From assembly GCA_903847585.1 (NCBI GenBank), contig CAINEC010000090.1:1-49277 (forward strand): 49,277 nt of DNA, read 5' to 3'. This stretch comes from an uncultured Bacteroidota bacterium (GTDB lineage Bacteria; Bacteroidota; Bacteroidia; AKYH767-A; OLB10). The position numbers were made by a program, and so were the translations under genes. Within the stretch, counting starts at the first letter, position 1, and each line of letters begins with the position of its first letter. Of the stretch, positions 10,678 to 27,611 are shown piece by piece. The notes under the pieces were generated by a model. The model did not search any database, was not told the origin of the DNA, and was given only the letters and a program-made list of their open reading frames with translations.

Positions 10678-13600
10678 TCACTTTGAACTTTCTTCCACAA
10701 TCTTTATCTCCTCTTCTGTTAGCTCATATAGCTCATACACCATACGATCAATCTCTCGGCCGGTTTGGTCTATTTGAGTTTTGAGTTCAAGTACTTTTTT
10801 CTTGTTCTCCTCGAACAATTCCATCCATTCAAATTCATCTGATTTTGTAAGTTTCTTACCGCCTGTTTTCTCATATGCCTTATTAAGTTCTTTTATAAAA
10901 TCGATAAATTCTAAATTGTACCAGTTTTGGAGTTTTTTGGTGAGTATTTCTATCTTCAGTTTTACTATATAATAATCTATAAATAAGCGTGATGATTTTT
11001 GAAACCCAATATTCAATTGCTGCATATTATTAGCCAATTGCGATAGTTCTAATTGATTTTTCTCACCTGCTTTAACAATTGGAAATTCGCGTACATCTTC
11101 AGGATAGACACTTGAATATGCCCCTTGCAAGGTGTCTGTACTTAAAAATTTGCTGAAATAATACGTGATTAATTTTGAGCATAATATTGCCAGAACAAAT
11201 TTCTCATTAATCTTAGTTTTTGTGTCAATAGCCCACCTTTTATCTGGTTGTTGATATGATATAATTTCTTCTGACCATCTAACTAAGTGCATAATACTAT
11301 CGTTCGTATAATATTGATCCTCATCGTAATAAGCAATAATCGAATTATTGTTTCCACTTGTCCTTCTAAGAATTATTTTTTTGCTTTCAAAAAGCAAATT
11401 GAATTTTGGTCGATGGAAATATTCTTTATTATTTTCATAATCCATGAACTGCCCATCAAATAGTAATGAATATCTGCTAAAATTAGGTCCAATAACATAT
11501 TTTTTAAATCCATCTTTGTATTCATTGTAAATAACATCGTCTTTCTTAAACTGTATAGGACTCTCTGCTTTAGAATGGGCAACAACGCCTACATTAACAC
11601 AAAACAATTCTCCGGTCTTAAAAGAGTTCTGAATTAATTTGTTGTAAATGCTAATATCATTCGAAGAAACATTGGTTTTATATGTACAGTTTTTTAGCGT
11701 GCTAAAAAATCTTTGGGGTACGCTTGTTCCAATATCATCCAAACCAAATTTAATTTTAACTTTATTTTCCGGTGATCTTTTTTTTCTTAAGTTGTAAATA
11801 AAGATTTGTCTGGCAACATTTTCAAAAATCACCTCCTCACCAAAATCAATAATTTCAACTAACTCTTGTTCATTGATGATTCTCTCCCGAATTAACTTAC
11901 CATATTTTTCCTTCAAGAATGAAGTTGGCAGAATAAAAGCATTATATCCTCCATCTTTAAGGTATTTGAGACTGATTGAAATAAAACAAATAAACAAGTC
12001 CCAGTGCCCAGTCAAATCATCTTTAAAGGCTTCGCTAAGCCATTCAACTATTTCTCTATTTGAATCTGACAAGGTCCAATTTGATACATATGGCGGATTT
12101 CCAATCACTACATCAAATCCACCTCTGTTAAACACATCCGGAAACTCTTTTTCCCAATTAAATGCTTTGTCGCCAGCTACGGCAGGATCATCAATTAATG
12201 AGTTACCGCATTTAATGTTATTGGATAAATCAGAAAGTTTTCTTCCCGGCTGTGCTGTGCGTAACCATAGCGAGAGTTTAGCAATCTCAATACTTTCTTC
12301 GTTAATGTCCACACCAAAAATATTGTTCTCTAAAATTTGTAAATCGGTATCAAACAAACGTAAAGGCGTGTTGGTTAGCTCTGCAATAATATCATCCACT
12401 AACTTATGCTCTTCAATAAAAAAAGAAAGTGCTTGGTTTAAGAATGCTCCACTACCGCAAGCAGGATCACATACTTTAATGGTCAGCAACCAATCTTTGT
12501 ACTCGTTTAAGCGTTCAAATAATTCTTTTCCTTTTTCATTCAGCTTGCCATCTGCTTTCTGATATTCAAAGATGGCAATGTCCTGGTCTAATTGTAACTC
12601 CGCTTTTTTCTCAGCACATAATTTCCCAAGAGTATTATCAACGATGTATTTGGTAATGTATTTTGGAGTATAAAATACACCATCTTTCTTCCGCTTACTT
12701 TTAGTTTTGTCCAACTGTTCCCCACGCAGCTCCGCCTCTACATCATCAATCTCATTTAAGGAATGTTCGAAAATATGTCCAAGAATATTTACATCCACAT
12801 CTGTATTAAAGTCGTATTTAGAAAGCACTAATAAATCATTCTTCAAAATCTCATCATCAATTTTGAGTGATTCTAAAACATCATCCGGCGCAAACAACTC
12901 ACCTCCAAACTGAGGAATTACCTCTCCTGTTTTCTGATAAGTATAACCACGATACAAGTGACCAAAATATTTGTTCACCATTTCGTAAAGTGGCTGGTAG
13001 TAATCATCATCGGCTACCGCCCATTTATCCACTATATTCACAATTGAATTAGTCCCTACTAATCCTTTATCTTCTGCAAACAATAAAAATAGAATGCGGT
13101 CTAAAAACTTCTGACTTTTCTTAAATAAGATAAGTTTATCATGCTGCGGATTATTCATTACAGCATTCTCATAAAAGCTTCGCTTAAATTGCGAGTAATC
13201 CTTATAAAGCTTTTTAGAAATCTCTTCTTCGTGAAACTTTGTTTCTTGTCGCAGAAGCTTGGGTAAGTTTTTATCTAATAACCCCTCCTTTCTCAGATAA
13301 AGGTAAAACCGCTTAAAGGTTTCTTTATCGAGATTGTAAAGGTCAAACTCTTCGTATTCGGTAGCATCATCAATATAAAAACGCAGCTTATGAAAATTAG
13401 AAGATATTACATAACTACATTCTTTATGGTTGTTTTTATAACTAAATGCCTGGTCCTTGACTGCATCGAGATTTTTTGTTTTGTTATCCTTTAACTCAAT
13501 AACGCCCACCACTTTTTCATCTCTCAGTATAGCACCATCGGCCTTTTTTGAATTTGTTTCGTTTTTCTTTTCTGTTTCAATATTAAACGGATGCTCTGGA

Positions 13601-13797
13601 TAAACAGAATATCCCAACACTGACCCAAATACGTCTTTAATAAATCCTTCCTGGTATTGCTCTTCCTTGGCAACTCTGATATTTTTTATTTTGTCAGGAG
13701 AGTAAACGCGCTTATATTCACTAAAAGCCGCCTCAATGATTTGCTCATCAATTAAACTTAAATGCTTTTTTATAATAGACTCTTGAAATAATGCCAT
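10678..13797 (-). CDS. Type IIG-like restriction-modification enzyme (Eco57I-type N6-adenine methylase)
   Basis: A 1039-residue single polypeptide. Residues 85-105 carry a PD-(D/E)xK-like signature, DGAI (Asp87) then VIELKDNK (Glu101, Lys103), consistent with a nuclease domain. The methylase core has motif I VCDPACGSGAFLNQA at about 440-455 and motif IV FDVVIGNPPYVSNW at about 560-575, the NPPY form typical of N6-adenine methylation. The last ~350 residues resemble TaqI/Eco57I-like target-recognition domains. Such enzymes both cut and modify, with specificity set by the C-terminal part. No separate R, M or S gene is adjacent. The frame is intact. Whether the nuclease is active cannot be told, and a phage-growth-limitation or BREX-like methylase is a less likely alternative because the N-terminal nuclease residues are present. 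Confidence 0.85.
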   Translation of the reverse strand: MALFQESIIKKHLSLIDEQIIEAAFSEYKRVYSPDKIKNIRVAKEEQYQEGFIKDVFGSVLGYSVYPEHPFNIETEKKNETNSKKADGAILRDEKVVGVIELKDNKTKNLDAVKDQAFSYKNNHKECSYVISSNFHKLRFYIDDATEYEEFDLYNLDKETFKRFYLYLRKEGLLDKNLPKLLRQETKFHEEEISKKLYKDYSQFKRSFYENAVMNNPQHDKLILFKKSQKFLDRILFLLFAEDKGLVGTNSIVNIVDKWAVADDDYYQPLYEMVNKYFGHLYRGYTYQKTGEVIPQFGGELFAPDDVLESLKIDDEILKNDLLVLSKYDFNTDVDVNILGHIFEHSLNEIDDVEAELRGEQLDKTKSKRKKDGVFYTPKYITKYIVDNTLGKLCAEKKAELQLDQDIAIFEYQKADGKLNEKGKELFERLNEYKDWLLTIKVCDPACGSGAFLNQALSFFIEEHKLVDDIIAELTNTPLRLFDTDLQILENNIFGVDINEESIEIAKLSLWLRTAQPGRKLSDLSNNIKCGNSLIDDPAVAGDKAFNWEKEFPDVFNRGGFDVVIGNPPYVSNWTLSDSNREIVEWLSEAFKDDLTGHWDLFICFISISLKYLKDGGYNAFILPTSFLKEKYGKLIRERIINEQELVEIIDFGEEVIFENVARQIFIYNLRKKRSPENKVKIKFGLDDIGTSVPQRFFSTLKNCTYKTNVSSNDISIYNKLIQNSFKTGELFCVNVGVVAHSKAESPIQFKKDDVIYNEYKDGFKKYVIGPNFSRYSLLFDGQFMDYENNKEYFHRPKFNLLFESKKIILRRTSGNNNSIIAYYDEDQYYTNDSIMHLVRWSEEIISYQQPDKRWAIDTKTKINEKFVLAILCSKLITYYFSKFLSTDTLQGAYSSVYPEDVREFPIVKAGEKNQLELSQLANNMQQLNIGFQKSSRLFIDYYIVKLKIEILTKKLQNWYNLEFIDFIKELNKAYEKTGGKKLTKSDEFEWMELFEENKKKVLELKTQIDQTGREIDRMVYELYELTEEEIKIVEESSK

Positions 13798-13925
13798 TTT
13801 ACTAAAGTACGAACATTGAATTAATTGAAGGAAGAAAGAATAGCTATATTGAAGATATCTTTAAAATACTACAACAAATAAATAGAATTCGAGAAAAGTT
13901 ATTAATTGCAATTATTAAGTTAGGA

Positions 13926-14627
13926 TTAATAGGTAGTTGCAGAAATCACATTCCAGCCAATAGAGTTTACTTCTTTATAATTTTCAATTTTCAATTCAAA
14001 ATTGACTTCAGAATTTGGCGGAAAGTTTTCATAAATTGTATAATTATTACTTCCTAATACTGTATTTGTTTTACTGTAATAAGTTACTGTAACAACTGCG
14101 TCTTTGTAGGTAACTTTAGTAGCATTGTTTTTAATTACTCCATGTACTTTAAGTTTGTCGCCCCAAAAGTTCTTATTATAAGTGCCATCAGCTTTTAAGA
14201 AATTACTTGGTTGTGATTTCTCTATTTCTTCCACAGTCATTACTTTTTCCTGGTAGGTGCTCTCATCTAAATTGTTACTATTATGGTTTAGCGTAGTAAT
14301 TATGTTAATTATAATTAAGATAGCTATAACTATTGCAGTAATCTTCAATAAAATATATTTTTTCTTTTTTGGAGTTTCGGAGTTAAACGAAGGTTGAGTT
14401 ATGTTAGCTTCTTTGGCAATTGGTGGAGGTGTATGTATCTGGTTTGAAAAAGGTGGTGGTGCTGATGCAAATAAAATTTTCAATTCAGGAACTTGGCCAA
14501 TTATTGTCCATGAGCTTAAACCATCAAACCAAACTGGTGATTGACTATTAAGCCCCATTGATTTTAATTCTTCAATATCAAAAGGCCCAGTTTGTTCACT
14601 GCCGTTATGTAAATAATATTTTTTCAT
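13926..14627 (-). CDS. GYF_2 (DUF4339) domain membrane protein
   Basis: A 233-residue protein. Residues 1-55 match the GYF_2/DUF4339 pattern (YYLHNGSEQTGPFDIEELKS...PVWFDGLSSWTIIGQVPEL), a small domain thought to bind Pro-rich peptides. A Pro-rich linker (APPPFSNQIHTPPP) follows, then a Lys-flanked transmembrane helix at about 93-118 and an outside domain of about 110 residues with TYNKNFWGDKLKVHG and VTYYSKTNTVLGS, resembling the FxLD/DUF3426-like beta domains that follow such helices. The inside-to-outside arrangement suggests a membrane sensor or adaptor. Genes on both sides are exported proteins on the same strand. Confidence 0.75.
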   Translation of the reverse strand: MKKYYLHNGSEQTGPFDIEELKSMGLNSQSPVWFDGLSSWTIIGQVPELKILFASAPPPFSNQIHTPPPIAKEANITQPSFNSETPKKKKYILLKITAIVIAILIIINIITTLNHNSNNLDESTYQEKVMTVEEIEKSQPSNFLKADGTYNKNFWGDKLKVHGVIKNNATKVTYKDAVVTVTYYSKTNTVLGSNNYTIYENFPPNSEVNFELKIENYKEVNSIGWNVISATTY

Positions 14628-14806
14628 AATTAAAATCCAATTAATTTAATAGGGCCTTGTAGCGCTTAAAATCTCTTTAAAGTAATCCTCAAAAGTAAAG
14701 TATAAAAATGGGAAACCAAAGATTTTATGTTTGGATGATTGTAGTTAAGATATTATATTGGATACCGCGAGTTTACAGTTAATTATTTTTTAGACTAACT
14801 TAATTA

Positions 14807-15421
14807 TTATTGATTTTCATTTTCTAGCTCGCTCTTGCAATAATCACAATAATCATCGTAAGTGTTAGATCTGTATCCGCCGCATTTTGGACAAGTATGT
14901 TCAATTTTACGTTTGCAATCATCACAATACTCTTCATAAGAGCTTTTTTCTTCACCACATTTCGGACAGGTAGTCTCTTCAACATCACTGTTAACATCTC
15001 TTCTTATTCTGTTTCCGTCAGTATATCCACAACCCCCGAAATCACCCAGCGTTACGGTATAACGATATCCTCTATCAGATCTGAATGAACATTCACCCGA
15101 AGAAATATCAGTTGAATGGAAATGTGTTTCATCAAGCCACCCACCATTGGGCCAATGGATTTTGGTTAACTCGCCATTTTCAACTTCTACATCTAAGTTG
15201 TAGGTATTTCGCGTTCCTGTATTAGGGTTGTAATATTCAACATCAGCGCAATAAGTTCCGTCTTTTAATTCATCCGAGTTTTCATCCTCAGATTCAATTG
15301 GCGCTTCAATATCTTCATCATTTTCAATATGTGAATCATTCTTTAATGATTTTGAAGTGTTATCACCACATGAAAATAAAACAAGAAATAGAATTATCTG
15401 TATGAGTAATTTTCTTAACAT
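14807..15421 (-). CDS. Lipoprotein with two C-terminal zinc-ribbon motifs
   Basis: 204 residues with a lipoprotein signal peptide (IILFLVLFSCGD, Cys about 18), an acidic linker, a domain at about 55-130 (TYCADVEYYNPNTGTRNTYN... GGWLDETHFHS) and a C-terminal tandem of CPKCGxxxSxxxxxCDxC units (CPKCGEEKSSYEEYCDDC and CPKCGGYRSNTYDDYCDYC). Zinc ribbons are normal in the cytoplasm but unusual after a lipobox. If the lipobox is used, the ribbons sit in the periplasm or outside the cell. Its stop is 178 bp upstream of the GYF_2 gene. No enzymatic motif seen. Confidence 0.72.
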   Translation of the reverse strand: MLRKLLIQIILFLVLFSCGDNTSKSLKNDSHIENDEDIEAPIESEDENSDELKDGTYCADVEYYNPNTGTRNTYNLDVEVENGELTKIHWPNGGWLDETHFHSTDISSGECSFRSDRGYRYTVTLGDFGGCGYTDGNRIRRDVNSDVEETTCPKCGEEKSSYEEYCDDCKRKIEHTCPKCGGYRSNTYDDYCDYCKSELENENQ

Positions 15422-15448
15422 GAAGAAATAGGGTTATTGTAATTTAAA

Positions 15449-15973
15449 TTAATAGGTAACTATATAGGAAGCTATTTCATTAATGTCAAATTTAGCCACG
15501 GATGATGGATAAATGCATTCACTATTAACGGCATCTTCCAAAAATGATTTATCCCAAATAATAGAGAAGTACATATAGTTTTTATCGACGGTAATATCTA
15601 ATTCGCGAAAACCAACTAAATAAAATTCTTTATAACAAAGCGGGTCTTCTTTTTGTGAAACTATGAAGTCTGCCTTTAATCTTAAATTAATTTTTTCTAA
15701 AAGTTTAATTGCGTTATCCCCAAATAATTGCGCATTGTTAATATAAACATTTTTGCCATTAACCACTTTATTAATAACTGTTGTTGTTATAGGTCTTGCA
15801 ATTCCTGGTGTGTTTGAAAAAAAATAGTAGTTTTTATACCGCCATGTAACTACTTCGTCAGGGCCCATCGCTCCATTGTCTTCTAACTTAGTCCCGATAT
15901 AAGTTGGAATGTTTTGAGCTAATAAATTTGTTTTTATAAAAAAAACAAGAAAAAATAGTGATATGTATTTCAT
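15449..15973 (-). CDS. Exported protein of unknown function
   Basis: 174 residues with a clean signal peptide (MKYISLFFLVFFIKTNLLAQ). The mature part has TYIGTKLEDNGAMGPDEVVTWRYKNYYFFSN near its start and ends in beta-type sequence (FDINEIASYIVTY). No family recognised. It sits 27 bp before the zinc-ribbon lipoprotein and 19 bp after the YwqK-type gene, all on the minus strand, so 18461 to 14807 may be one transcription unit. Confidence 0.62.
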   Translation of the reverse strand: MKYISLFFLVFFIKTNLLAQNIPTYIGTKLEDNGAMGPDEVVTWRYKNYYFFSNTPGIARPITTTVINKVVNGKNVYINNAQLFGDNAIKLLEKINLRLKADFIVSQKEDPLCYKEFYLVGFRELDITVDKNYMYFSIIWDKSFLEDAVNSECIYPSSVAKFDINEIASYIVTY

Positions 15974-15992
15974 ATTTTATATAAATTATTTT

Positions 15993-18461
15993 CTATTTAA
16001 GTATTCCATTCTCGTATTTTTCTTCTTTAATAACATCTCCATTTTCATCATAATATATTGATTTCCCATTTCTCAAGCCATCAGCTATTTTAAACATAAA
16101 TTGTGTTTTCCCATTTGGATATTTTAATACTAGTTTGCCATCAAAAAGTTTATTTGATTTATTGTAATAAAAAATGGGAGTGCTTCCTATATTATTGGTA
16201 TAAATTTGTTCAAAATACACATCTGAATCATTAAAATAGTATTTCCAATTACCTACTTGCATTCGTTTAAGATAATATCCTTCAGTTTGTAACGTAAAAA
16301 TTTTATCATATAATTTATATTCTCCGTCTTTATAACCGTATTTACCGTCTCCTTTTTCACCTGTAATTAATGAGAAATATAAAGGGAAATAGCGATAATT
16401 AATTTTATTATCATCCCCTGTTAAAATTGTATAAACTTGCGATACAATTTGATTGTTAAGAAATTCTGTCACTTTACATTTTATTTGAGAATTAGTCTCT
16501 TCAAATAATTCATATTTAATCAAAACAATATTACCTATAGAATCATATAAATATACGGATTTTAGTTTCCCAAATTCAAAGTACTTTTCTTCTTCAGGTT
16601 TATTATATTTGTTAAAGCTAGTTACTTTACCGTTTAATTCTCCATTGACAAAATTGTACTCTCTAATTATAAAATTTTCTTTCTTAAATTCAACCCATTT
16701 ACCTTGTTGTAAATTGTTTTCATAGTTACCTTTAACAAACACATAACTATTGTCAGATTCTGAGTTATCATTAAAGTAAGTTTCTAACCAAATTCCTTCT
16801 TTAATTCCATTGATATAATTCCCTTTAAATGTTGTTATATTGTTGGAGTCTTTTACTTCAAAAGGGCCATGCAGGACATCGTTTTTATAATAAGCGATTT
16901 CATTAGTCGAGTGATAAATAGATGTAGTACATGTGTCAAGTGGGTTTGCGTTTTTATTACCTGTTGTGTCACATGGAATTTGTTTTTCTTCAACATACCA
17001 ATACCTTACTTCTTTCCCATTCTTTTTCCCATTTAAATAATTTTCTATAAGAAATAATTTTTCTGAATAAGGCAATGGTTTGTTTTTTAATTCGGTCATT
17101 TTTTCAAAATAATATTTCCATTCGCCATCTTCAAGATCATTAAAATATGCTCCTTCTTTTATTAGAGAACTGGTTAAAGAGTAAAATTTCCAGTAACTAT
17201 TTTTCTTGCCCAATATATAAAATCCAGATGTCATTAATACTGCATTATTTGTATCACCGCTTATAGTACCAAATAACCAATCACTAATATTTATATATTC
17301 TTTATAATCGCCAGTTAGTAATTCATTTTTATATGTTCCAAATATGATAGTATCTCCTTTTACTTCTCTAAATGGACCATCTTTAATTCCATTTCTGTAG
17401 TCAAAGTACTCAATTACATTATATTTATCTTTTTCGTACTTCAATGTTACCCAATGACCATTTTTTAAATCGTTATAGTATTCTCCAATTATTTTAAATG
17501 TAAGTTTGTTTTCATTATAGATATATTCTTTATAGTTCCCATTTAGCTTGTTATCAAGCATGGTATATTCCATATTTATTTTATTATCATCATTGTACTG
17601 AATAAATTGACCATCTTTTACTCCATACTTTAAATTACCGGACATAAATAATCGACCCTCTTTATAAATTTTATATGGTCCAATTAATTCATCGTCTTTG
17701 TATGTATAAACTCCTGATAAATTTCCATCTTCATCATATTCTTTTGATTGTCCATTTCGCCTATCATTTATGTAATACGATTCTATCTTAATTTTCCCAT
17801 TCTTATAAAATAATTTAGAAACACCGTTATATTGACCATCTTTAAGTGTTATTTCTGATGATAAATTTCCTTCATCGTCAAATATTTTTTTTATACCGTT
17901 ATTAACATCGTAAATTCCCCTTTTTAAAATTACAACTGTCGTATAAGCCGTTATTGCACTGTTTTCGTATTCACTATCATCTTCTTGCCTACTTGTTCTA
18001 ATGGATACTATATAAGAACTATTTTCATAATTACTTATAATATTATCTTCTTCGATAGTATTCCCAGTTAATTTCAAATTTGCTGAGGCTATTCCATTTT
18101 TTATTTGAGAAAAAGACGATTTATTAAAACAAGTATAGACTATTTTGTTTGGTAATCCATCGTAAGTGTAGATATAAAACCACCCTTTAGCTTTCTCTTC
18201 ATAATATTCTTTTTTATAAGACCAAGTTATTGTGCTATATTCTGTATCATCTCCTTTGGAAGACTCATAATAATCCCATCCGTTATTGGTTAAGTGCTCA
18301 TTTACTTGTGTCCAATTAGTTTTTTTACATAGATTGAATAGTTCATTTAAAGATATGCTTTGACCGAAGGAATAATCAAAAGAGAAACACAAAAACATTA
18401 TCAAAACTTTTGTAAAGTATTTTAAAATTAAGTTTTTTAAAGAGGGAATTAAATATTTCAT
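15993..18461 (-). CDS. Large exported MORN/YwqK-type repeat protein
   Basis: 822 residues with an N-terminal signal segment ending at FDYSFGQS (about residue 34); an internal ATG at 18398 would give a shorter signal. Residues about 35-185 form a non-repeat domain. From about 190 to the end the protein is built of many copies of a 20-25 residue unit of the form Y..G...G....Y...G.L....Y, for example DGQYNGVSKLFYKNGKIK and NDRRNGQSKEYDEDGNLS. This is the MORN-like repeat seen in the YwqK family often labelled antitoxin. At this length and with a signal peptide it is more likely a surface or periplasmic scaffold. No toxin partner is apparent beside it. Confidence 0.78.
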   Translation of the reverse strand: MKYLIPSLKNLILKYFTKVLIMFLCFSFDYSFGQSISLNELFNLCKKTNWTQVNEHLTNNGWDYYESSKGDDTEYSTITWSYKKEYYEEKAKGWFYIYTYDGLPNKIVYTCFNKSSFSQIKNGIASANLKLTGNTIEEDNIISNYENSSYIVSIRTSRQEDDSEYENSAITAYTTVVILKRGIYDVNNGIKKIFDDEGNLSSEITLKDGQYNGVSKLFYKNGKIKIESYYINDRRNGQSKEYDEDGNLSGVYTYKDDELIGPYKIYKEGRLFMSGNLKYGVKDGQFIQYNDDNKINMEYTMLDNKLNGNYKEYIYNENKLTFKIIGEYYNDLKNGHWVTLKYEKDKYNVIEYFDYRNGIKDGPFREVKGDTIIFGTYKNELLTGDYKEYINISDWLFGTISGDTNNAVLMTSGFYILGKKNSYWKFYSLTSSLIKEGAYFNDLEDGEWKYYFEKMTELKNKPLPYSEKLFLIENYLNGKKNGKEVRYWYVEEKQIPCDTTGNKNANPLDTCTTSIYHSTNEIAYYKNDVLHGPFEVKDSNNITTFKGNYINGIKEGIWLETYFNDNSESDNSYVFVKGNYENNLQQGKWVEFKKENFIIREYNFVNGELNGKVTSFNKYNKPEEEKYFEFGKLKSVYLYDSIGNIVLIKYELFEETNSQIKCKVTEFLNNQIVSQVYTILTGDDNKINYRYFPLYFSLITGEKGDGKYGYKDGEYKLYDKIFTLQTEGYYLKRMQVGNWKYYFNDSDVYFEQIYTNNIGSTPIFYYNKSNKLFDGKLVLKYPNGKTQFMFKIADGLRNGKSIYYDENGDVIKEEKYENGILK

Positions 18462-18808
18462 AAGTAGATATTTAGTTACATATTTCCATACTAACTTGAT
18501 GATTTATTACATGTTTTAAGCTAGTCAAATATTCCTTATTTAAAACATTAATCGGGTAATTACTTAAACAAGTTATTGTTTTCGGATTATCTATTTTTTT
18601 TACCTGCATCAAATTTAAATATTTATAAATCTTATTCCAATTGGTTATTAAATGGATTTCATAAACTACCTAATATTTGACTTTAATTGTCTGAAATACT
18701 AATCAAATTAAGTCCCTCAAATCAACTAACCCTTTGAAGCATGGGGGTAAAAGTGTATTTTCGCTACGAGACATTTACAATACTCATTAATCCGATTAAT
18801 AAACAACC
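18462..18808. other. Divergent intergenic region between the YwqK-type gene and the four-gene operon
   Basis: 347 bp of very AT-rich DNA between divergent genes, so it must hold promoters in both directions. AATATTTGACT occurs on both strands (near 18672 plus, near 18530 minus), each one base off the TAnnTTTG -7 consensus, but I could not match a well-spaced -33 element. A 71-codon ATG frame at 18741 overlaps the operon's first gene in another frame and is rejected as a gene. No other coding frame is seen. Confidence 0.5.
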
Positions 18809-19327
18809 TTGTATACCTTTCATCAGCATATTCACAATTACGCGGTATGGACAGCCGCAAGAGCAAGCCAACGTGGTTTTACAACTACTAGAAAAATTAA
18901 AGTGGCAATTAAGTCGACAGACTTACAGCAATTTGCTATCAATTCTCCTAATATAAGCAGCAATCAATTTGATGTATTGCATAAGCAATGGGCCCGACAA
19001 ATTATAAAGTCGTTGAAAAAGCAAAATGTCAATGCCAGTTTAGTAACCTATGGTAGAGCTGCTAAAATCATTGCTATTTATCTGAAAACTGCGGTTATTA
19101 TACGTGATAAAGCAAAATCTAAAATCTGTGATATCATTCACCCACCAATTGATTTTATTTTTATTACTGCAATTTCAAGAAGGACATCTTTACAAGAAAT
19201 CAAGAATAATAAATGGACTAAGCTCAATGAAAAAGAATATTGGTTGCTATGCAGCAAAATAAAAAAGGAGTTTTCTATTTTAAATTGGAAACTAGAAGAG
19301 TTTTGGACCCCTGAATTAGCAGTTTAA
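18809..19327 (+). CDS. Small basic protein, first gene of candidate defence operon (TTG start)
   Basis: 172 residues. The frame has a stop at 18800-18802 and only TTG at 18809 as an initiator before the conserved-looking segment HNYAVWTAARASQRGFTTT (residues 9-27), so the start is TTG. That segment and KIKVAI recall short proteins that accompany helicase/nuclease operons, a memory I cannot verify here. No catalytic motif is evident. The middle (VTYGRAAKIIAIYLKTAVII) is helical. It has a C-terminal EEFWTPELAV and is rich in Lys and Arg. It ends 9 bp before the next gene, so translation is probably coupled. A DNA-binding or accessory role is inference. Confidence 0.75.
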   Translation: MYTFHQHIHNYAVWTAARASQRGFTTTRKIKVAIKSTDLQQFAINSPNISSNQFDVLHKQWARQIIKSLKKQNVNASLVTYGRAAKIIAIYLKTAVIIRDKAKSKICDIIHPPIDFIFITAISRRTSLQEIKNNKWTKLNEKEYWLLCSKIKKEFSILNWKLEEFWTPELAV

Positions 19328-19336
19328 TTTTATCTC

Positions 19337-20518
19337 ATGCAACCACAATATTATTTTACTTCTCCAGATCCTGATTATTTACCTAAGGGCGCAGTAGATC
19401 CACTTGGATTCCAAGTAATATGGCAGCATCAAGGGAAAAAATTAATTCCGTACCTATCAACAGTTAGTATTCTTGCAAGGGATTTTCAAGTCCTTTGCAT
19501 AGCTCGTTATTTATATGGTCATGATAAAGAAGCTGGTTGGCCAAAATATTTTCTGCGATTTGAGCAGCTAATGGCGTATGCTCGTTGTATCAAATTTCCA
19601 CGTGTTGGTTTCAACGGTGTAGATAGAGTTAGAAATCGTGTAAATGAATTAAATCGTTTTCCTATCAGTAATAATCCCAATGATGAAATACTTTCGAATC
19701 AACGTTCTTACGGTGTTTGGGGTAAGTATATTCGTCCTTTTTTGGATATCGGGTTTGATAAGGATGAAATGTTTTATAAAATTTATGGAGATAAATTAAA
19801 TCCACTTTTACAACTTCCCGAATTTAAAAATATCATTCAAAAGCTAAAAACAGGAGAACGTTTTACGATTGATCGTGAGTTAATACAAATAATATTTCCT
19901 TTGTTCGATTTTGAAAAAAATGAAAAAGAATTTTTGGTAAATAAAATTATGCGATTTGAAGCTGCAGATGCATATCAAAATCGTTTATTTGATTTTATTA
20001 GTACAACGAAACAACAAGGAGAATTTAAACTGTATGATTTCCTTGCTCAATTTTCAAATTATTTAAGTAAGGAGGAGACCACATTAAAAGAGATGATTCT
20101 CTGGCATGAACAAACAGAAAAAGTGTTAAGTCCTATAAGTACTATTTTTCGCTACTTGCAAACGAAACCATTGTGGACAAAAGATGAAATACAAAAAGAC
20201 GAATATATTACCAATTGTAAATTAGATACAGGTTTTAGATTTCCATCAGGAGAAAAAAATTATGATTTGTTAAATCATTTTCGAGATCTGATGAAAGGAA
20301 ATAATTGGAATATAATAGAAGCATTGCACGAAAGAAATTGTGAGGTGACTACATGGCGAGGTGGCGCTTCGTGGATAACAATCAATAAAGACTTATTGGA
20401 AGTTCGTCATTCAGATGGGGCTAAAATAAAGAAAGAGTTCAACCCTCAAGTGCATCAAGAGAATGAATACTTCATTCCAACCTTCATTTCTATTTACCAA
20501 CAATTGATGCAAGCATGA
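19337..20518 (+). CDS. Unknown 393-aa component of the four-gene operon
   Basis: The ATG at 19337 begins MQPQYYFTSPDPDYLPKGA, followed by PLGFQVIWQHQGKKLIPYLS and STVSILARDFQVLCIARYLY. The sequence is soluble, mixed alpha/beta, with no signal peptide or membrane helix. I do not recognise the family. KFPRVGFNGVDRVRNRVNEL is charged and helical. The C-terminal RGGASWITINKDLLEVRHSDGAK could be a small beta domain. There is no obvious nuclease, ATPase or methylase signature. It overlaps the next gene by the 4-bp ATGA, a sign of translational coupling, and its conserved position between the small protein and the PLD protein suggests a structural or recognition subunit. Confidence 0.72.
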   Translation: MQPQYYFTSPDPDYLPKGAVDPLGFQVIWQHQGKKLIPYLSTVSILARDFQVLCIARYLYGHDKEAGWPKYFLRFEQLMAYARCIKFPRVGFNGVDRVRNRVNELNRFPISNNPNDEILSNQRSYGVWGKYIRPFLDIGFDKDEMFYKIYGDKLNPLLQLPEFKNIIQKLKTGERFTIDRELIQIIFPLFDFEKNEKEFLVNKIMRFEAADAYQNRLFDFISTTKQQGEFKLYDFLAQFSNYLSKEETTLKEMILWHEQTEKVLSPISTIFRYLQTKPLWTKDEIQKDEYITNCKLDTGFRFPSGEKNYDLLNHFRDLMKGNNWNIIEALHERNCEVTTWRGGASWITINKDLLEVRHSDGAKIKKEFNPQVHQENEYFIPTFISIYQQLMQA

Positions 20519-22530
20519 GTAAAATTGGCGATTATCAATTAAAGCAACAGCTCAAAGATTTAATTGCGGGTAGAACTGTTAAGGCAGCGCTTTTTCATAC
20601 CTTCAATTTTAGTCCTCGATTTTTTGAAAATTACATCATGCCCTTGTTGGTTCCATCGCAACGCTTTCTCAATAATGAAATTGCAAATCATATTGTATGG
20701 CGTAACTTGTATAAAGAACAACACGTTCCTCCCATAACTGTTTATTTCGATCAAGATGCTAAAGATGTAGCTGGTGGTCCTATGCTTGATTATGATTTTA
20801 AGGCTGTGCGAATGCCCACTGTAGGAAAGTACAAAGGGAACTTTCATCCAAAGCATTCTTTTATTTTAGTAGAGAATGAAAATAGAGTAGAGGAGTTATT
20901 AATTATTGTTGGTTCAAATAATATTACGCAAAATGGATGGTGTGAAAACATCGAATGCATCGCACAAATTGTACTGAATCAGCAACGCTATTATCCTATT
21001 TCGCTTTGTTCAAGCTTTCAAGAATTTATTCGTAATACAGCTTCACACTTTGGTGGTAATATTTTATCAGCTGCAGAGGAAAAAGTCATCAAGTCGTTAA
21101 ACAGAATAAATGCTAAGAATCAAAATGCTCCTGTGTTTTATGATTCGATGCAAGGTTCATTTATGGATTTTTTAGAGCAAAATATTTTTGAAAAAGATCA
21201 TATACGCACAATCGAAATTCAAAGTCCTTATTTTTCGAACGATGCCGCATTGGTAGATCAGTTAATTGCAAAGGGAATAAAAGTACATATACAGGCTCCG
21301 CTCCGTGATGGATTAATGCAAATAGAGCAAGAAGTATTTGAGATGTATTCTAACAAAGGAGTAGTTTGGTATTACCCCGATAATACGTCGAGAAATAGTC
21401 ATCGTAAAATTTATCGTTTACATGGCCAAGGGAAAATGTATACCATTATTGGCTCTGTTAATTTTACAAATCCTGCATGGCGAGGATATTCTGAAAAGGC
21501 TAAACAAATTTTTAATATCGAGAGTGCTTTGTTATTTGAACAAAAAGTAGAGAAGCCAATTTATTTACTGGAAAAAATCTTGAAGCCGGAACATTTTCGA
21601 TTTATGGAGCCGGTAAAAACAGAAGAAGCTAATTTTGAACGTAACGAAGTGCCTGAGATATATTTTGAAATCGATTGGACATTAAAGCGATTAACATGGA
21701 ATAATAAGTCTAAGGCAAAATGTATTTTACAATTACCAGGCGATATTGAACAAGAGTTATTTTCAAAAGGATTTATTGATTTCACGCAACAGCAGCATGG
21801 AGAAGCAATGCTCGATGCCTTAGCGCGTAATTCACTACTAACGGTGGTGGAGCAACGAGAAAAGGAAGAAGTAAAGCACTTGTACTACATGACTCAAATT
21901 GGATTTGGGCAGCGTCCTTCTCATTTTTTTATTACTCCTTCGGATATGATTGATGCCTGGGACTTGCTTGGAAAGGATAGTGAAGTATTACGGGAGTGGT
22001 TTGAAAATACATTTGAGCGTTTAACGGATTTAATGCAAGATGAAAGTGGGAAAATAATAGAAGGAGAAGTAGCTAAAAAAAGTTTATTAAACGATATGGC
22101 TCGTCAGTTTTATGGATTATCGAAGCTCGAAGAAAATTTATTTGACGATAAGAAATTGAAACAATCGGAGAAACAAAAACAGAAACATTTTCAATCGATT
22201 GTTTATTATTTAACGCATGATAATGTTGATACGCTCTTGAACTATATACGTGGAATACAAAAGCTGCATCAAGAAGGTGGAATCATGCATAGCTACTACT
22301 GGTTGCTCTTACAAATTGTGAAATTACGTTTTTATGAAAATAACAATTTGAAAAAATTCAGTAAGCAATGCGGAGGAGAAGATGGTTATAAAGCAATTAA
22401 AAAAATGACTGATCAGCGTATCACGATGATAAATGAATTATCGGATAAAGTAGAAAGTAGTTTTGAGGTAGATAAGAAATTATTACAATGGACAATTAAA
22501 AATCTTCAATTCGGAAATGGAGTATATTAA
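20515..22530 (+). CDS. Phospholipase D-fold protein, putative nuclease of the four-gene operon
   Basis: 671 residues. Two half-sites of the PLD fold are visible. The first is HPKHSFI with GSNNITQNG (His111, Lys113, Ser134, Asn135). The second is HRKIYRL with GSVNFTNPAW (His296, Lys298, Ser314, Asn316). Each keeps the HxK and the GSxN element, but the Asp usually four residues after the Lys is missing in both. That is seen in several nuclease-type PLD proteins, so activity is plausible but unproven. Residues 340-671 are a helical C-terminal region. It overlaps its neighbours by 4 bp upstream and 14 bp downstream. In a helicase operon this is the probable DNA-cutting or DNA-binding subunit. Confidence 0.82.
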   Translation: MSKIGDYQLKQQLKDLIAGRTVKAALFHTFNFSPRFFENYIMPLLVPSQRFLNNEIANHIVWRNLYKEQHVPPITVYFDQDAKDVAGGPMLDYDFKAVRMPTVGKYKGNFHPKHSFILVENENRVEELLIIVGSNNITQNGWCENIECIAQIVLNQQRYYPISLCSSFQEFIRNTASHFGGNILSAAEEKVIKSLNRINAKNQNAPVFYDSMQGSFMDFLEQNIFEKDHIRTIEIQSPYFSNDAALVDQLIAKGIKVHIQAPLRDGLMQIEQEVFEMYSNKGVVWYYPDNTSRNSHRKIYRLHGQGKMYTIIGSVNFTNPAWRGYSEKAKQIFNIESALLFEQKVEKPIYLLEKILKPEHFRFMEPVKTEEANFERNEVPEIYFEIDWTLKRLTWNNKSKAKCILQLPGDIEQELFSKGFIDFTQQQHGEAMLDALARNSLLTVVEQREKEEVKHLYYMTQIGFGQRPSHFFITPSDMIDAWDLLGKDSEVLREWFENTFERLTDLMQDESGKIIEGEVAKKSLLNDMARQFYGLSKLEENLFDDKKLKQSEKQKQKHFQSIVYYLTHDNVDTLLNYIRGIQKLHQEGGIMHSYYWLLLQIVKLRFYENNNLKKFSKQCGGEDGYKAIKKMTDQRITMINELSDKVESSFEVDKKLLQWTIKNLQFGNGVY

Positions 22531-25500
22531 CGATAGTACAATTCGAAGAATCCTGAATTTACAGGGGAGTCCGCTCATCCATAAAAGTATTGCCGATCGT
22601 CAAATTGAAGTAATACGAAAGGGGTATAATTATCTTTCACAAGATGGGAATAATGCCCTTTACATAGCGGATGAAGTAGGTTTAGGCAAAACGTATATTG
22701 CTTTAGGAATTGCTTCTTTACTACGCCATTTTTCTACCAATCCAGAAACGCATCAAGATGTAATTATTGTCCCAAAGAATAATTTGCAATTAAAATGGCG
22801 GAAAGAGATTTTACAATTTTCAAATAACAATTATCAATTATTAGATAACCGCGTAAAGTCAGTTATCGGTAAGCCTACCGGAGAAATACAAATTCATCAT
22901 CAGTTGGAAGCTATTGCTGCTGATGTGCCTACATATCATTTGTATCGTAGCTCTAGTTTTTCGTTTGGTTTATCAATTCATGAGAAAACAAATTTAATTG
23001 AAGAGCTGCAAGAATGTTTTATTGATCCTGTTTCAATAGCCTATCTTGAGCAGGCGAAAGTATTAGGATATTTCAGAGAGCAGAATAAAGGTCTTCTGAA
23101 AAAATTCTGTGCGTATTTAATGGCCATCACGAATCCAACAATTGAATTATTGATTGTAGATGAAGGTCATAATTTCAAAACAGGTCCTGGAAGTTTAGAG
23201 AATGCAGAAGTAGCAGCTCGTAATGCAGTGGCATCACGTTTCTTCGGATTAAAAATGAATACAGCGGAAGATGTAAAAATATTTTCAGATTTTCCTGAAT
23301 TAAAAAACCAGATAAAACCTAAGGTTCAAAAACTGATTGTTTTATCGGCTACACCAAAGACGTATAGTTTAATTGAAATTAAAAATCAGCTTGATTGTTT
23401 TTTACCAAATCATATTTTAAGTGGTTGTAAACGCGAAAAAGAAATTCAAGAAAAACTTCCTTACTTTTTAATTCGTGGTAAAATGGAATATACCATTCGT
23501 GATGTGCGACATACACGTAATCAATGTCGCTTTGAACATCGCAATGGAAATGCTATTAAGGCCAAAGATGCCGCACCAATACAATTGCAAGAGGGAGAGC
23601 AAGCGCTTTTCATGGGATTATTACAATACAATACTATCCGACATTTAAATCAAAAACACAATGGCAATGTAGAGATGGGAATGTTAGCTGGATTTGAAAC
23701 CTATCGTTTAGATGCGCAAAAATTTTTGAAAGATGAGCCGGAGTATGAAGACACACGTTCTACAAGAATTAATAAGTCGCAAGACCAACCCATCTTAGAA
23801 CAATTAATGCAATCGTGGAGTGAAGAGTTCGTAGATGCACCACCGCATCCTAAACAATCAGTGATGGTAGATGCATTATTAGAAATGATGAAGCGTGGTG
23901 AGAAAGCATTGATATTTGTAAGGCGCGTTGCTTCTGCTTATGAATTAGAACAACGATTAATGCAACGATGGCAGAAAGAAGTAATAGCACCTGAATTAAA
24001 AAACCATTGGAGTAAGGTGCTACCTAGTGTTCAACTAAATGCACTAATAAATGCTTTTGAAGAACATGAGGAGAATAAACAATTACGTGAAAATATTGAT
24101 GATATTATAGCTAGCACGATTGAGCGCTTATTAAAAAATCGTTTTGGATTCGATTTTCAATTTATAAAACAAGTTTCAGCTAAGGAAACATCAATTGAGA
24201 ATGCACTGAAAACCGGACTTTATTATTTATACCATCATATAAAAATAGTAGATAAAGATGGTTCATTTAAAGACGGATTGATGCGACAAACTCGTGTAAG
24301 TAAATTTAAAGTAGAGTGGTTGGAGCTAGCCTATCAACTGTTGAAAAAGGAATATGGTAATTGGAGTCCATTTGTTGATGACGGAATAAAAGAACACGAG
24401 GAAGAAGAACCAGATGCTTACTTCTTTCACTCCTATTTTCAGACCCCAGCGGCAGGTCCTTTTAAGCGAAAAAGTTTATATCAAAAGGATTGGTTTGATC
24501 CTAATTATTTTTTAATTAATAAACACTTTCAACTCTTCGATTTTAATGAGGAGGCTTTGAAGAAGCAAAATATACATGCGAAAGATCAATCTGACTTAAA
24601 AGAAATTCAAGAAATATTTATCAAACATAGTTTGAAAGAAAATTATGTAGAAAAGCAATTAAACGAAAGTGATTATCCTGGAATGCTTTTTAAAAACAAC
24701 TTAATAACTACGTTGATGACGGATTTATTAAGTGAGGAAGTGTCAGATTTTATTCAAGAGTATTCAAGCAAAGGAATTGAATCGTTAATTCATGAGTTAA
24801 GAACATTATCGACCATATTACGAAGTATATTAAGAAATGGAAGTGGATTTCTTCCTGTGTTTATAGCAGCGCATGTACAAGGAAATATCGAAACAAACTT
24901 TCTAATATTACTTAAAAAGAAAGACAGTATATTTCAACTTGTAACAAACGAGTTAAAAGCAATTGTTCGTGATTATCGTTTATTGCGCGCGGTAAATTTT
25001 CCAGATAGTGATCGAATAAGTGAAATAGAAAATAAGTTATTATATCAAACACCTATTAAAGGTTTAACAGGATCTAACAAGAGCAAGGGCAAATGGGCAA
25101 CACAATTTAGAATGCCAGGATTTCCTTATGCGCTTATTACAACAGATATTTTTAGAGAGGGAGAAGATTTGCATACTTACTGTGATAACATTTATCATTA
25201 TGGAATTGCATGGAACTGTACCGATATGGAACAACGTACAGGAAGAATAGATAGAATTAATTCGCTAAGTCACCGAGCAATGTCGAAAGATCAAGCAGTT
25301 AATTTCGACAATCAGATTCATGTATTTTATCCTTATGTCCAAAAGACATTAGAGGTAAATCAGGTACATAAACTTTTCACGAATATTAACAGCTTTGTAA
25401 AATCATTTGATATTGTTGATTCAATAAATGATGATGGCTTGGTAGAGACAAGTTTGAAAGTAGAAGAGATGCCATCCGTTATTGATAAGCCGCTACATTC

Positions 25501-26011
25501 GCAATTTGAGCATGATAAGTTTAAGAGTGATGTAAAGCAAGGAACTATCAAACATATTCAAAATCGAATTGGTAAATCTAAAGAAGAGGTCCTTCAAGTT
25601 TTAAAAGAAATCAATAAGAAATTAAATACGAATGGCGAATATTATTTCACGCCTTCATTGGATGAAAATGAATTTATTATTCGTGCTGTTATGAAGTTGA
25701 ATGAAGATGATGAACGTCGCGGCCCATTTCAAATAAAAGTTCAAAATGATGATGTGCCGGGGAACTTCAATATTGAAGTTGCTGCTTACTTATTTAAGCA
25801 ATCATCAAAGATCATGAAGGTTGTAGCTAATGAAAAAAGCTTAGAGCATTATAAAGTTATAGAAATAGAGGATTATTATGCGCTATCATACATCGAATCG
25901 TTAAATGAAATCCTAGCTGCTAACTTTTATGAAAGGCTTTATGCATTACTGCGCTATACCGATCATTTAGAAAGACAGTCAACCAATTTTGATTTGAGCG
26001 TATTTGAGTAA
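22517..26011 (+). CDS. SNF2-like DEAD/DEAH-box helicase of the four-gene operon
   Basis: 1164 residues. Motif I is ADEVGLGKT (about 51-59), motif Ia VPKNNLQLKW, motif II VDEGHNF (about 214-220, a DEGH variant of DEAH), motif III LSATP (about 276). The C-terminal RecA domain carries TTDIFREGEDLHTYCDNIYH and EQRTGRIDRIN (about 873-918), motifs V and VI of superfamily 2. A helical insertion of about 500 residues separates the two RecA halves, which is common in SNF2-type enzymes of restriction and defence loci. It should couple ATP hydrolysis to translocation on double-stranded DNA and so supply the motor of the operon. It ends 4 bp before the purN remnant. Codon use is AT-rich like the rest of the operon. 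Confidence 0.88.
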   Translation: MEYINDSTIRRILNLQGSPLIHKSIADRQIEVIRKGYNYLSQDGNNALYIADEVGLGKTYIALGIASLLRHFSTNPETHQDVIIVPKNNLQLKWRKEILQFSNNNYQLLDNRVKSVIGKPTGEIQIHHQLEAIAADVPTYHLYRSSSFSFGLSIHEKTNLIEELQECFIDPVSIAYLEQAKVLGYFREQNKGLLKKFCAYLMAITNPTIELLIVDEGHNFKTGPGSLENAEVAARNAVASRFFGLKMNTAEDVKIFSDFPELKNQIKPKVQKLIVLSATPKTYSLIEIKNQLDCFLPNHILSGCKREKEIQEKLPYFLIRGKMEYTIRDVRHTRNQCRFEHRNGNAIKAKDAAPIQLQEGEQALFMGLLQYNTIRHLNQKHNGNVEMGMLAGFETYRLDAQKFLKDEPEYEDTRSTRINKSQDQPILEQLMQSWSEEFVDAPPHPKQSVMVDALLEMMKRGEKALIFVRRVASAYELEQRLMQRWQKEVIAPELKNHWSKVLPSVQLNALINAFEEHEENKQLRENIDDIIASTIERLLKNRFGFDFQFIKQVSAKETSIENALKTGLYYLYHHIKIVDKDGSFKDGLMRQTRVSKFKVEWLELAYQLLKKEYGNWSPFVDDGIKEHEEEEPDAYFFHSYFQTPAAGPFKRKSLYQKDWFDPNYFLINKHFQLFDFNEEALKKQNIHAKDQSDLKEIQEIFIKHSLKENYVEKQLNESDYPGMLFKNNLITTLMTDLLSEEVSDFIQEYSSKGIESLIHELRTLSTILRSILRNGSGFLPVFIAAHVQGNIETNFLILLKKKDSIFQLVTNELKAIVRDYRLLRAVNFPDSDRISEIENKLLYQTPIKGLTGSNKSKGKWATQFRMPGFPYALITTDIFREGEDLHTYCDNIYHYGIAWNCTDMEQRTGRIDRINSLSHRAMSKDQAVNFDNQIHVFYPYVQKTLEVNQVHKLFTNINSFVKSFDIVDSINDDGLVETSLKVEEMPSVIDKPLHSQFEHDKFKSDVKQGTIKHIQNRIGKSKEEVLQVLKEINKKLNTNGEYYFTPSLDENEFIIRAVMKLNEDDERRGPFQIKVQNDDVPGNFNIEVAAYLFKQSSKIMKVVANEKSLEHYKVIEIEDYYALSYIESLNEILAANFYERLYALLRYTDHLERQSTNFDLSVFE

Positions 26012-26015
26012 TGAA

Positions 26016-26110
26016 TTACATTTTTTCTATTTGCGATATTATCACCCTAGCAAAATGCTCTTTCTCCAACGCTGCAATCTTTTCGGCTACGCGCTCGGGT
26101 GAGTCGGTAG
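26016..26110 (-). pseudogene. Remnant of a second purN 3' end (direct repeat, left copy)
   Basis: On the minus strand this reads TDSPERVAEKIAALEKEHFA then RVIISQIEKM and a stop at 26016-26018. It matches purN (27643-27712) at 66 of 70 bases over 26041-26110. All four mismatches fall at third codon positions and are silent. After VI the remnant continues to a different C-terminus from the intact gene. A TAA lies directly upstream of the fragment. It is therefore the tail of a divergent purN allele, not a copy of the resident gene. It abuts the helicase stop by 4 bp and marks the right edge of module B. Confidence 0.87.
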
Positions 26111-26119
26111 TTTAAAAAA

Positions 26120-27436
26120 CTATTTATCCTGTAATTTCATTACAGCATACAAAGGAATAATTTGTATTTGATTTAATACTCCAAAATTTTCGAGAGAAAG
26201 TCGGTAGCCTAGACTTCGTTTTTTTTCCTCTAAAAACAAGTACATACTTTGCATACTGCCTTTGGTTCCAGATTTCACTTCTAATGGGTAAATGTTATTT
26301 TCTTTTGAAATGACATAATCTACTTCGGCTTGGCTATTACGAGAATCGCGTTGCCAATAGTAAAGTGATAATGGAACGTAAGGGTCGGCAGTTTTAATTA
26401 ACTCTAAGCCTACATACAATTCAGCAATGTTTCCTTTGTTAATCACATCAATATTATCTGCTAACATTAGCGACGAAAGATCAAGACCTAATAAACGTTG
26501 GTAAACGCCTGTGTCGTAAATCAAGTACTTTACTTTTTTCGGATTTATTTCAGCACCCAACGGAACACCATTAGCCGAAGTATGTGTTACCGGATAAATT
26601 AATCCTGCCATTTCTAGCAACTGCAATGCTTCTTTAATTTGTCGGGCATATAAAGTTGCATTTGGATAAGTGTATGAGAATTTGTTTCCTGTTTGATAAA
26701 CAACACTGTTAAACACTTCTATTAAGCGAGAGGAAGGAACCTTTGTTTTGTATTTAGCAAAGTCATCCTGAATAGATAGTTGTAAATCGTTTAAAATGGT
26801 TTGCACCTCCAATAAACTTTTATTCTGTACATAGGTTCGTACCACTTCTGGCATTCCTCCGATCAATAAAAAAACTTTATATAAAGCAATTAGTTTATCG
26901 TGGATGCTATCAGGCAAAGAAGTTTTAATATCGTGTTCGAGCAGATGATTAGAAAGATTGTTTTCTCCCATTGCATTTAGAAATTCTGAGAAGCACATTG
27001 GGTACATAAACAAAGAACGAATTCTTCCAACACCAAACGAAGGTAGTTCGGCAAGTGCAAATTCAAGCAATGAGCCTGCTGCAATTACGTGTAGCGCTGG
27101 TAGTTTTTCATAGAAATAACGCAACGCTTTTAGGGCAGGCAAACACGATTGTATTTCATCTAAAAAAAGTAAGGTCTCACCAGCATGAATAGGAGTATTT
27201 GTTAATAGTTCTAGTTGTTGGCAGATTTCTTCAATCGAGTAATCCTGATTGAACAGTTGATGATAAGTAGTGTTTTCATCAAAATTGATATAAACAAAGT
27301 GCTTAAATTGCTCCCCAAGACGCTTAACAGCACTGGTTTTACCTACCTGCCGAGCGCCTCTTAACAACAAAGGCTTACGGTTGGCCTCTGTTTTCCATTT
27401 AATTAACTGATTATCAATATTTCTTACTAAATACAT
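26120..27436 (-). CDS. AAA ATPase with DUF4143 and PD-(D/E)xK-like C-terminus
   Basis: I place the start at the ATG at 27436 (MYLVRNIDNQLIKWK), giving 438 residues; the longer frame from 27496 only translates the tandem repeats. Walker A is LLLRGARQVGKT (residues 23-34) and Walker B TLLFLDEIQSC (Asp93, Glu94). The C-terminal DUF4143 part contains EVDYVIS and YPLEVKSG, the residues of a PD-(D/E)xK-like fold. Members of this family are abundant and mobile in Bacteroidota and archaea, with unsettled function; nucleic-acid processing and defence roles are proposed. It is the only gene of module C, between the purN remnant and purN. Confidence 0.85.
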   Translation of the reverse strand: MYLVRNIDNQLIKWKTEANRKPLLLRGARQVGKTSAVKRLGEQFKHFVYINFDENTTYHQLFNQDYSIEEICQQLELLTNTPIHAGETLLFLDEIQSCLPALKALRYFYEKLPALHVIAAGSLLEFALAELPSFGVGRIRSLFMYPMCFSEFLNAMGENNLSNHLLEHDIKTSLPDSIHDKLIALYKVFLLIGGMPEVVRTYVQNKSLLEVQTILNDLQLSIQDDFAKYKTKVPSSRLIEVFNSVVYQTGNKFSYTYPNATLYARQIKEALQLLEMAGLIYPVTHTSANGVPLGAEINPKKVKYLIYDTGVYQRLLGLDLSSLMLADNIDVINKGNIAELYVGLELIKTADPYVPLSLYYWQRDSRNSQAEVDYVISKENNIYPLEVKSGTKGSMQSMYLFLEEKKRSLGYRLSLENFGVLNQIQIIPLYAVMKLQDK

Positions 27437-27440
27437 GCAA

Positions 27441-27530
27441 TTTTTGTCGAAAATCCAAACCAATATTACATCATTTTTGTCGAAAATCCAAACCAATAAT
27501 CTCTCATTTTTGTCGAAAATCCAAACCGAA
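27441..27530 (-). repeat. Three 33-bp tandem repeats upstream of the AAA ATPase
   Basis: A 24-base core starts at 27441, 27474 and 27507, an exact 33-bp period, with 9 variable bases after each core. The first two cores are identical; the third differs only in its last bases. On the gene's strand the core reads TTTGGATTTTCGACAAAAA and ends 4 bp from the ATPase start codon. Position and phasing, about three helical turns, fit an operator array or repeat-based leader. There are too few units with too short spacers for a CRISPR. Confidence 0.85.
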
Positions 27531-27611
27531 GGGTTCTATTTGGACATTAAGCAGGTCTAAATTTCAAAAAATCACCTTTTAGTTTTCTCTGCTTTTCGTT
27601 GAGACGATTGC

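What the first reader, a model, noticed from the sequence alone, without database searches (positions are those of the whole stretch)
18809..26011. Candidate uncharacterised four-gene defence system (small protein, unknown 393-aa, PLD nuclease, SNF2 helicase)
Four plus-strand genes are tightly coupled (9-bp gap, 4-bp and 14-bp overlaps) on an island with a restriction-modification enzyme. A DNA motor plus PLD-fold protein resembles DISARM, Mokosh, Dpd and the four-component restriction-like set of earlier surveys, but there is no methylase, DUF1998 or deazaguanine gene in the operon. The first two proteins are not recognisable to me. The operon is a complete, intact unit and so likely selected as cargo.
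Basis: inference. Interest (0 to 1): 0.85.

Follow-up and report, generated by a model that had tools for sequence, protein, structure and literature searches.

The report
Divergent PDC-M27 / Azaca-like defence operon
A bacterial gene cluster encoding a DNA-tracking motor, a DNA-cutting enzyme and a partner protein is a far-diverged version of a defence-system candidate already in a public catalogue; it is probably an anti-virus DNA-destruction machine, untested, and carries an optional small extra protein also found beside the related Azaca system.

Summary
The four ORFs and their 9-bp gap, 4-bp and 14-bp overlaps are real. The three large genes are not an unknown set. In order they match all three components of PADLOC candidate PDC-M27: A 9e-10, B 2e-19, C 2e-62. 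The A match is only 36 bits, against 605 bits for a typical member, so this is a divergent branch. Seven other M27 loci have the same A-B-C order. None has the 172-aa gene, including the sister MAG at the same chromosomal site. The system is therefore three genes plus an optional accessory. A close homologue of the 172-aa protein sits directly behind a complete Azaca operon. M27 B and C are homologous to Azaca ZacB and ZacC, and A shares a short N-terminal signature with ZacA. The operon lies in a dxs-purN insertion hotspot that is empty in one congener and holds McrBC in another. Most likely mechanism (inferred): an SNF2 translocase directs a BfiI/Tdp1-like PLD nuclease to destroy invading DNA, with A as sensor or adaptor. 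Defence activity has not been tested.

The parts
18809..19327 (+). g1: 172-aa all-helical accessory protein (TTG start), no family in Pfam, NCBIfam or PADLOC
   Evidence: Homologue (45%) directly behind an Azaca operon in L033. Standalone on plasmids pHALHY02, pQBR57 and pPL1. AlphaFold2 pLDDT 77.5, pTM 0.78. Absent from the sister MAG and other M27 loci.
19337..20518 (+). Component A, 393 aa, PDC-M27A-like; possible adaptor/sensor
   Evidence: PADLOC PDC-M27A 9e-10, 36 bits. 90% and 33% identical homologues in L022, L026, L027. N-terminal signature shared with ZacA: hhalign score 35 vs maximum 23 in 100 shuffles.
20515..22530 (+). Component B, 671 aa, PDC-M27B-like PLD nuclease with two HxK...GSxN...E half-sites (H111/K113/S134/N136/E147 and H296/K298/S314/N316/E336)
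   Evidence: PF13091 1.4e-10. PDC-M27B 2.1e-19, ZacB 5e-8. Residues invariant in the four-sequence alignment. Both HxK motifs in the M27B and ZacB proteins checked.
22517..26011 (+). Component C, 1164 aa, PDC-M27C-like SNF2-family helicase/translocase
   Evidence: PDC-M27C 2.4e-62; next best ZacC 2.2e-19, DrmD 5.3e-17. DEVGLGKT (52), DEGH (212-218), SATP (277) and QRTGRIDR (906) present.
6085..27611 (.). Defence island inserted between dxs and purN
   Evidence: dxs and purN are 25 bp apart in congener L097; the gap holds McrBC in L096 and a broken McrBC-like remnant plus HNH gene in L095. Low GC: 0.29-0.35 vs 0.36-0.40 in the backbone.
10678..13797 (-). Type IIG restriction-modification enzyme, same island, not part of the operon
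   Evidence: REase_MTase_IIG 3.5e-223; Eco57I methylase domain.

Best explanation
Genes 19337-26011 are a divergent member of the catalogued candidate PDC-M27, a three-component (A-B-C) system related to Azaca. Shown by sequence: conserved A-B-C order, B a PLD-superfamily protein with two intact HxK/SxN/E half-sites, C an SNF2-family ATPase with intact motifs, placement in an insertion hotspot, purifying selection. Inferred: A, B and C form one complex. C engages and translocates on invading DNA using ATP, A recognises the target or licenses the complex, and B cuts DNA without a metal ion, as PLD nucleases coupled to SF2 motors do in CglI and SauUSI. No methylase belongs to the unit, so self is probably spared by recognising a DNA state or structure (ends, replication intermediates, foreign modification), not by protective methylation. 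Gene 18809-19327 is an optional accessory, perhaps a regulator or specificity factor, that can also attach to Azaca.
For: PADLOC matches to all three M27 components in order, repeated for relatives. Same A-B-C order in L022/L021, L026, L027, L036, L049, L060, L063. Homology of B to ZacB (E 4e-11) and C to ZacC (8e-23), with unrelated controls at 0.07-0.7. Catalytic residues invariant. Hotspot with empty site and McrBC alternatives. Purifying selection. g1 absent from the other M27 loci, and beside Azaca in L033. Mechanistic precedent: PLD nuclease plus SF2 ATPase in CglI (PMC5737866) and SauUSI (PMC7913695).
Against: No experiment known to me shows that PDC-M27 stops phages. The A match to PDC-M27A is weak and patchy (36 bits). 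The fold of A could not be predicted (pLDDT 39), so its role is a guess. B could act on ends or be regulatory. The absence of a methylase does not exclude use of the type IIG methylase in the same island.
Confidence: 0.68

Rival explanations
1. It is a modification-dependent (type IV-like) restriction system: A or g1 reads a modified base on incoming DNA and the PLD/helicase pair shreds that DNA, as SauUSI does at methylated sites.
For: PLD plus SF2 motor is the SauUSI architecture (PMC7913695). A ZacB relative matches PADLOC mREase_IV weakly (1.4e-3). Vsr-type endonuclease genes lie a few kb from M27 in L026 and L027 (naming from sequence recall), and McrBC occupies the same hotspot in L096.
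Against: No known modified-base reader domain found in A or g1. Neighbouring Vsr and McrBC genes are common island cargo.
Confidence: 0.17
2. All four genes form one system in this lineage, with g1 an essential fourth subunit.
For: 9-bp spacing and same strand. The two strong Bacteroidota chromosomal g1 genes found are both next to a PLD/SNF2 operon, M27 here and Azaca in L033.
Against: The sister MAG keeps A, B and C with 90%, 74% and 79-88% identity but has no g1. None of six other M27 loci and only one Azaca locus of those examined has it. g1 also stands alone on plasmids.
Confidence: 0.08
3. A modification-protected restriction system in which the type IIG enzyme (10678-13797) supplies the methylation that marks self for A-B-C.
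For: Same island; NCBIfam places its methylase near PglX (4.4e-35).
Against: It is 5 kb away on the other strand, is a self-contained type IIG enzyme, and no such gene was seen beside M27 in L026 or L027.
Confidence: 0.04

Closest known systems
PADLOC candidate PDC-M27 (A, B, C)
   Same: Three components, same order and direction, all three models hit; canonical members in a Rhodoferax antarcticus plasmid (L060) and in a genome of the same family (G016, L036).
   Different: Component A scores 36 bits against 605 and 235 bits for canonical members and matches the model only in pieces; C groups with L026/L027 apart from L060/L036 in the tree.
Azaca (ZacA-ZacB-ZacC; Millman et al. 2022, from memory; PLD domain noted in PMC10952713)
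   Same: A-B-C layout with close or overlapping genes. B and C homologous. A shares the N-terminal 'G..DpLG...STvs' signature. g1 family occurs beside one Azaca.
   Different: A is not DUF6361. ZacB/ZacC models match only in part, whereas true Azaca L033 matches at 1e-84, 6e-133 and 3.5e-252.
CglI and SauUSI restriction enzymes (PLD nuclease plus SF2 ATPase)
   Same: PLD nuclease working with an SF2 translocase (PMC5737866, PMC7913695).
   Different: No methylase partner in the unit (CglI's cognate methylase is from my knowledge), an extra component A, and RE_NgoFVII only below its cut-off (14.5 vs 23.8 bits).
DISARM (DrmD), Dpd (DpdE), BREX BrxH
   Same: SNF2-type helicase with local similarity (DrmD 5e-17, DpdE 2e-12).
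   Different: No methylase, DUF1998, or deazaguanine genes in the operon.

Membership tests
PDC-M27 (PADLOC) | All three components A, B and C present, adjacent, same strand | tested here: met
   PDC-M27A 9e-10, PDC-M27B 2e-19, PDC-M27C 2e-62; order as in L060 and L036.
PDC-M27 (PADLOC) | Full-length match of each component to its model | tested here: inconclusive
   A matches in three short stretches, 36 bits; B and C match in two stretches each. PADLOC's own calling thresholds were not available.
Azaca | ZacA with DUF6361 domain | tested here: not met
   No ZacA or DUF6361 match for A; only a 40-50 residue profile-profile signature.
Azaca | ZacB PLD and ZacC helicase matching over full length | tested here: not met
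   ZacB 5e-8 and ZacC 2e-19, partial stretches, against 6e-133 and 3.5e-252 in true Azaca.
DISARM | DrmB (DUF1998) and methylase in the operon | tested here: not met
   No such domain in the four genes.
Dpd | Deazaguanine insertion genes | tested here: not met
   None among the four genes by Pfam, NCBIfam or PADLOC.
Mokosh | MkoA/MkoB-type helicase and PLD proteins | tested here: inconclusive
   No Mokosh model among PADLOC matches at E<=1; whether the library names these models otherwise was not checked.
CglI/NgoAVII-type restriction | NgoFVII-type PLD endonuclease plus cognate methylase | tested here: not met
   RE_NgoFVII 14.5 bits, below the 23.8 cut-off; no methylase in the operon.
Anti-phage defence system | Protects cells from phage | not testable with these tools
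   Needs a plating assay.

The most novel reading that the evidence does not exclude
PDC-M27 and Azaca are two deep branches of one unrecognised superfamily of three-component PLD/SNF2 systems whose A proteins descend from a common ancestor, and g1 is an exchangeable accessory that plugs into both branches and changes target choice or regulation.
Probability: 0.35. Interest if true: 0.6.

Novelty: new variant of a known kind. Interest (0 to 1): 0.42.

Why it matters
If right, it joins a candidate for which I found no reported mechanism (PDC-M27) to a reported system (Azaca) through shared B, C and probably A parts, and shows that sensitive profile searches can find M27 branches that strict model coverage may miss. 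It also names catalytic residues to mutate and a small exchangeable accessory protein, and describes a dxs-purN defence hotspot in a Bacteroidota genus.

Tried and rejected
Structure of component A: AlphaFold2 with three sequences gave pLDDT 39, unusable. Fold search for g1: no Foldseek match at E<=0.001; best VIA-align Z 7.7 over 78 residues, within noise for helical proteins. PDB sequence searches with A, B and g1 gave nothing credible. Literature: no paper in the held library mentions PDC-M27 or DUF6361. DUF499-centred BREX-related systems (PMC12839542) were considered and set aside: they need a DUF499 ATPase and a methylase. From recall I suspected a uracil-DNA-glycosylase-like domain fused to g1 in L078 and so looked at Brig1 (PMC11078745); Pfam, NCBIfam and PDB gave no support, so no claim is made. 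M27A was not found in plasmids or by two scans of viral contigs. ZacC in G276, which has a weak partial g1, was not found. M27B of L063 was mistranslated (wrong frame), so the B-ZacB comparison is cited only.

Full report
WHAT IS THERE. I call them g1, A, B and C. Pfam finds a PLD domain in B and SNF2/ResIII plus Helicase_C domains in C, and nothing credible in g1 or A. C has intact motifs DEVGLGKT, DEGH, SATP and QRTGRIDR. B has two half-sites of the form HxK...GSxN...E. Both are invariant in the four-sequence alignment, and both HxK motifs occur in the M27B and ZacB proteins checked. There is no classical HKD aspartate; by established knowledge this resembles BfiI/Tdp1-type PLD enzymes.

IT IS A CATALOGUED CANDIDATE, IN A DIVERGENT FORM. 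In PADLOC-DB 2.0.0, A, B and C match PDC-M27A (9e-10), PDC-M27B (2.1e-19) and PDC-M27C (2.4e-62), and g1 matches nothing. Homologous operons show the same three genes in the same order: a sister MAG of the genus (L022/L021), G080 (L026), G165 (L027), G016 of the same family (L036), a 'Bacteriophage sp.' contig (L049), a Rhodoferax antarcticus plasmid (L060) and a viral-collection contig (L063). The Rhodoferax and G016 operons are canonical: A scores 605 and 235 bits. In the window branch A scores about 36 bits. A tree of C separates L060/L036 from the branch holding the window, L026 and L027, with L049/L063 beside it. M27A is rare: 3 of 395 genomes of the class and three clear hits among 345 of the phylum, each count including this genome.

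g1 IS NOT A FIXED PART. No other M27 locus examined has g1; in particular the sister MAG keeps A at 90%, B at 74% and C at 79-88% identity at the same site and lacks it. A 45% homologue of g1 lies 52 bp behind the helicase gene of a complete Azaca operon in G031: ZacA 1.2e-84, ZacB 6e-133, ZacC 3.5e-252. In three samples of relatives (149, 296 and 247 genomes) G031 was the only strong chromosomal relative besides the window itself. Haliscomenobacter hydrossis carries g1 on plasmid pHALHY02 and Azaca on pHALHY01. g1 also stands alone on Pseudomonas plasmids pQBR57 and pPL1, on a viral contig (L079), and as the C-terminal part of a 432-aa protein (L078). The association with PLD/SNF2 operons is therefore suggestive but rests on two cis cases. 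g1 is predicted all-helical (pLDDT 77.5, pTM 0.78), with no recognisable fold. Its TTG start is plausible, because the L039 homologue starts at the same point.

RELATION TO AZACA. By profile-profile comparison B matches ZacB (E 4e-11 over about 300 columns) and C matches ZacC (8e-23), with controls at 0.07-0.7. A matches ZacA only over its N-terminal 40-50 residues (E 8e-4). With an enlarged alignment the A-ZacA score was 35.4, against a maximum of 22.8 in 100 column-shuffled controls and 17.1 reversed. The matched segment reads 'KGAVDPLGFQVIWQHQGKKLIPYLSTVSILARDF' in A and 'PGTLDELGLGSVRDGFANLFFPGTTTIQTRAKYF' in ZacA. I treat common ancestry of B and C as shown and that of A as likely. A is not DUF6361, so the operon is not Azaca.

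WHERE IT SITS. The operon is in a 21.5-kb low-GC island between dxs (ends 6084) and purN (27612-28268). In congener G005 dxs and purN are 25 bp apart, the empty site; in G004 the region downstream of purN holds McrB and McrC genes; in G006 an HNH gene and McrBC-like remnants (McrB/McrC naming from the sequences). In the sister MAG C is 38 bp from purN. In the window a 70-bp copy of the purN 3' end (26041-26110, 94% identical) lies between C and an AAA_14/DUF4143 gene (26120-27496; PADLOC PDC-S01 7e-143), so that gene probably arrived later by insertion at the purN 3' end. A hotspot filled by different defence genes in different species supports a defence role. dN/dS of about 0.06-0.08 for A, B and the start of C between window and sister MAG shows that the proteins are maintained (the dS of B and C is near saturation).

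HOW IT MOST LIKELY WORKS. Shown by sequence: intact motor and nuclease residues, conserved operon, island setting, purifying selection. Inferred: A, B and C form a complex in which C tracks on DNA, A recognises the target or controls assembly, and B cuts DNA metal-independently. The nearest biochemical models are CglI, a PLD nuclease plus helicase-like ATPase that translocates and cuts on collision (PMC5737866), and SauUSI, which shreds methylated DNA (PMC7913695). M27 has no dedicated methylase, so self-protection is probably by DNA state or by sensing foreign modification. Hachiman is a precedent for a nuclease-helicase pair activated by damaged or aberrant DNA (PMC12278908).

VERDICT. A real, intact and probably functional defence operon, but a new variant of a catalogued kind and not an unknown four-gene system. 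Its value lies in the M27-Azaca link, the exchangeable g1, and the residues and hotspot that make it testable. No defence activity has been shown for it.

Noticed in passing
window 26041-26110 and 26120-27496: A 70-bp remnant of the purN 3' end (94% identical) lies between component C and an AAA_14/DUF4143 ATPase gene (PADLOC PDC-S01, 7e-143); the gene seems to have inserted at the purN 3' end, as it is absent from the sister MAG.
   Followed up: partly
window 6085-27611; L095, L096, L097: The dxs-purN gap is a variable insertion hotspot in this genus: empty in L097, McrBC in L096, HNH gene plus broken McrBC-like pieces in L095, M27 in the window and L021.
   Followed up: yes
L078 7239-8537: g1 domain is the C-terminal part of a 432-aa protein whose N-terminal half has no family match.
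   Followed up: partly
L038 9968-10543 (pQBR57), L039 10001-10603 (pPL1), L079 7962-8543: Standalone g1-family genes on Pseudomonas plasmids and on a viral contig: a small-protein family without a model in the libraries searched, with motifs YGRAAKI and HPPID.
   Followed up: partly
L049 5806-12747 (MT835507.1): A record labelled 'Bacteriophage sp.' carries a full M27 operon with ATPase and WYL-type regulator genes around it (naming from recall); it looks more like a bacterial island than a phage.
   Followed up: no
window 15993-18461; L022 2-670: MORN-repeat-type proteins lie directly upstream of the operon in both the window (minus strand) and the sister MAG (plus strand), although the rest of the left side differs.
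   Followed up: no
window 29048-29599: An HNH/NUMOD-like small gene (naming from recall) between purN and the acyl carrier protein gene is kept at 75-98% identity in the congeners examined.
   Followed up: no
L036 4555-11367 (G016): A genome of the same family carries a canonical PDC-M27 operon, so both M27 branches occur within one bacterial family.
   Followed up: yes
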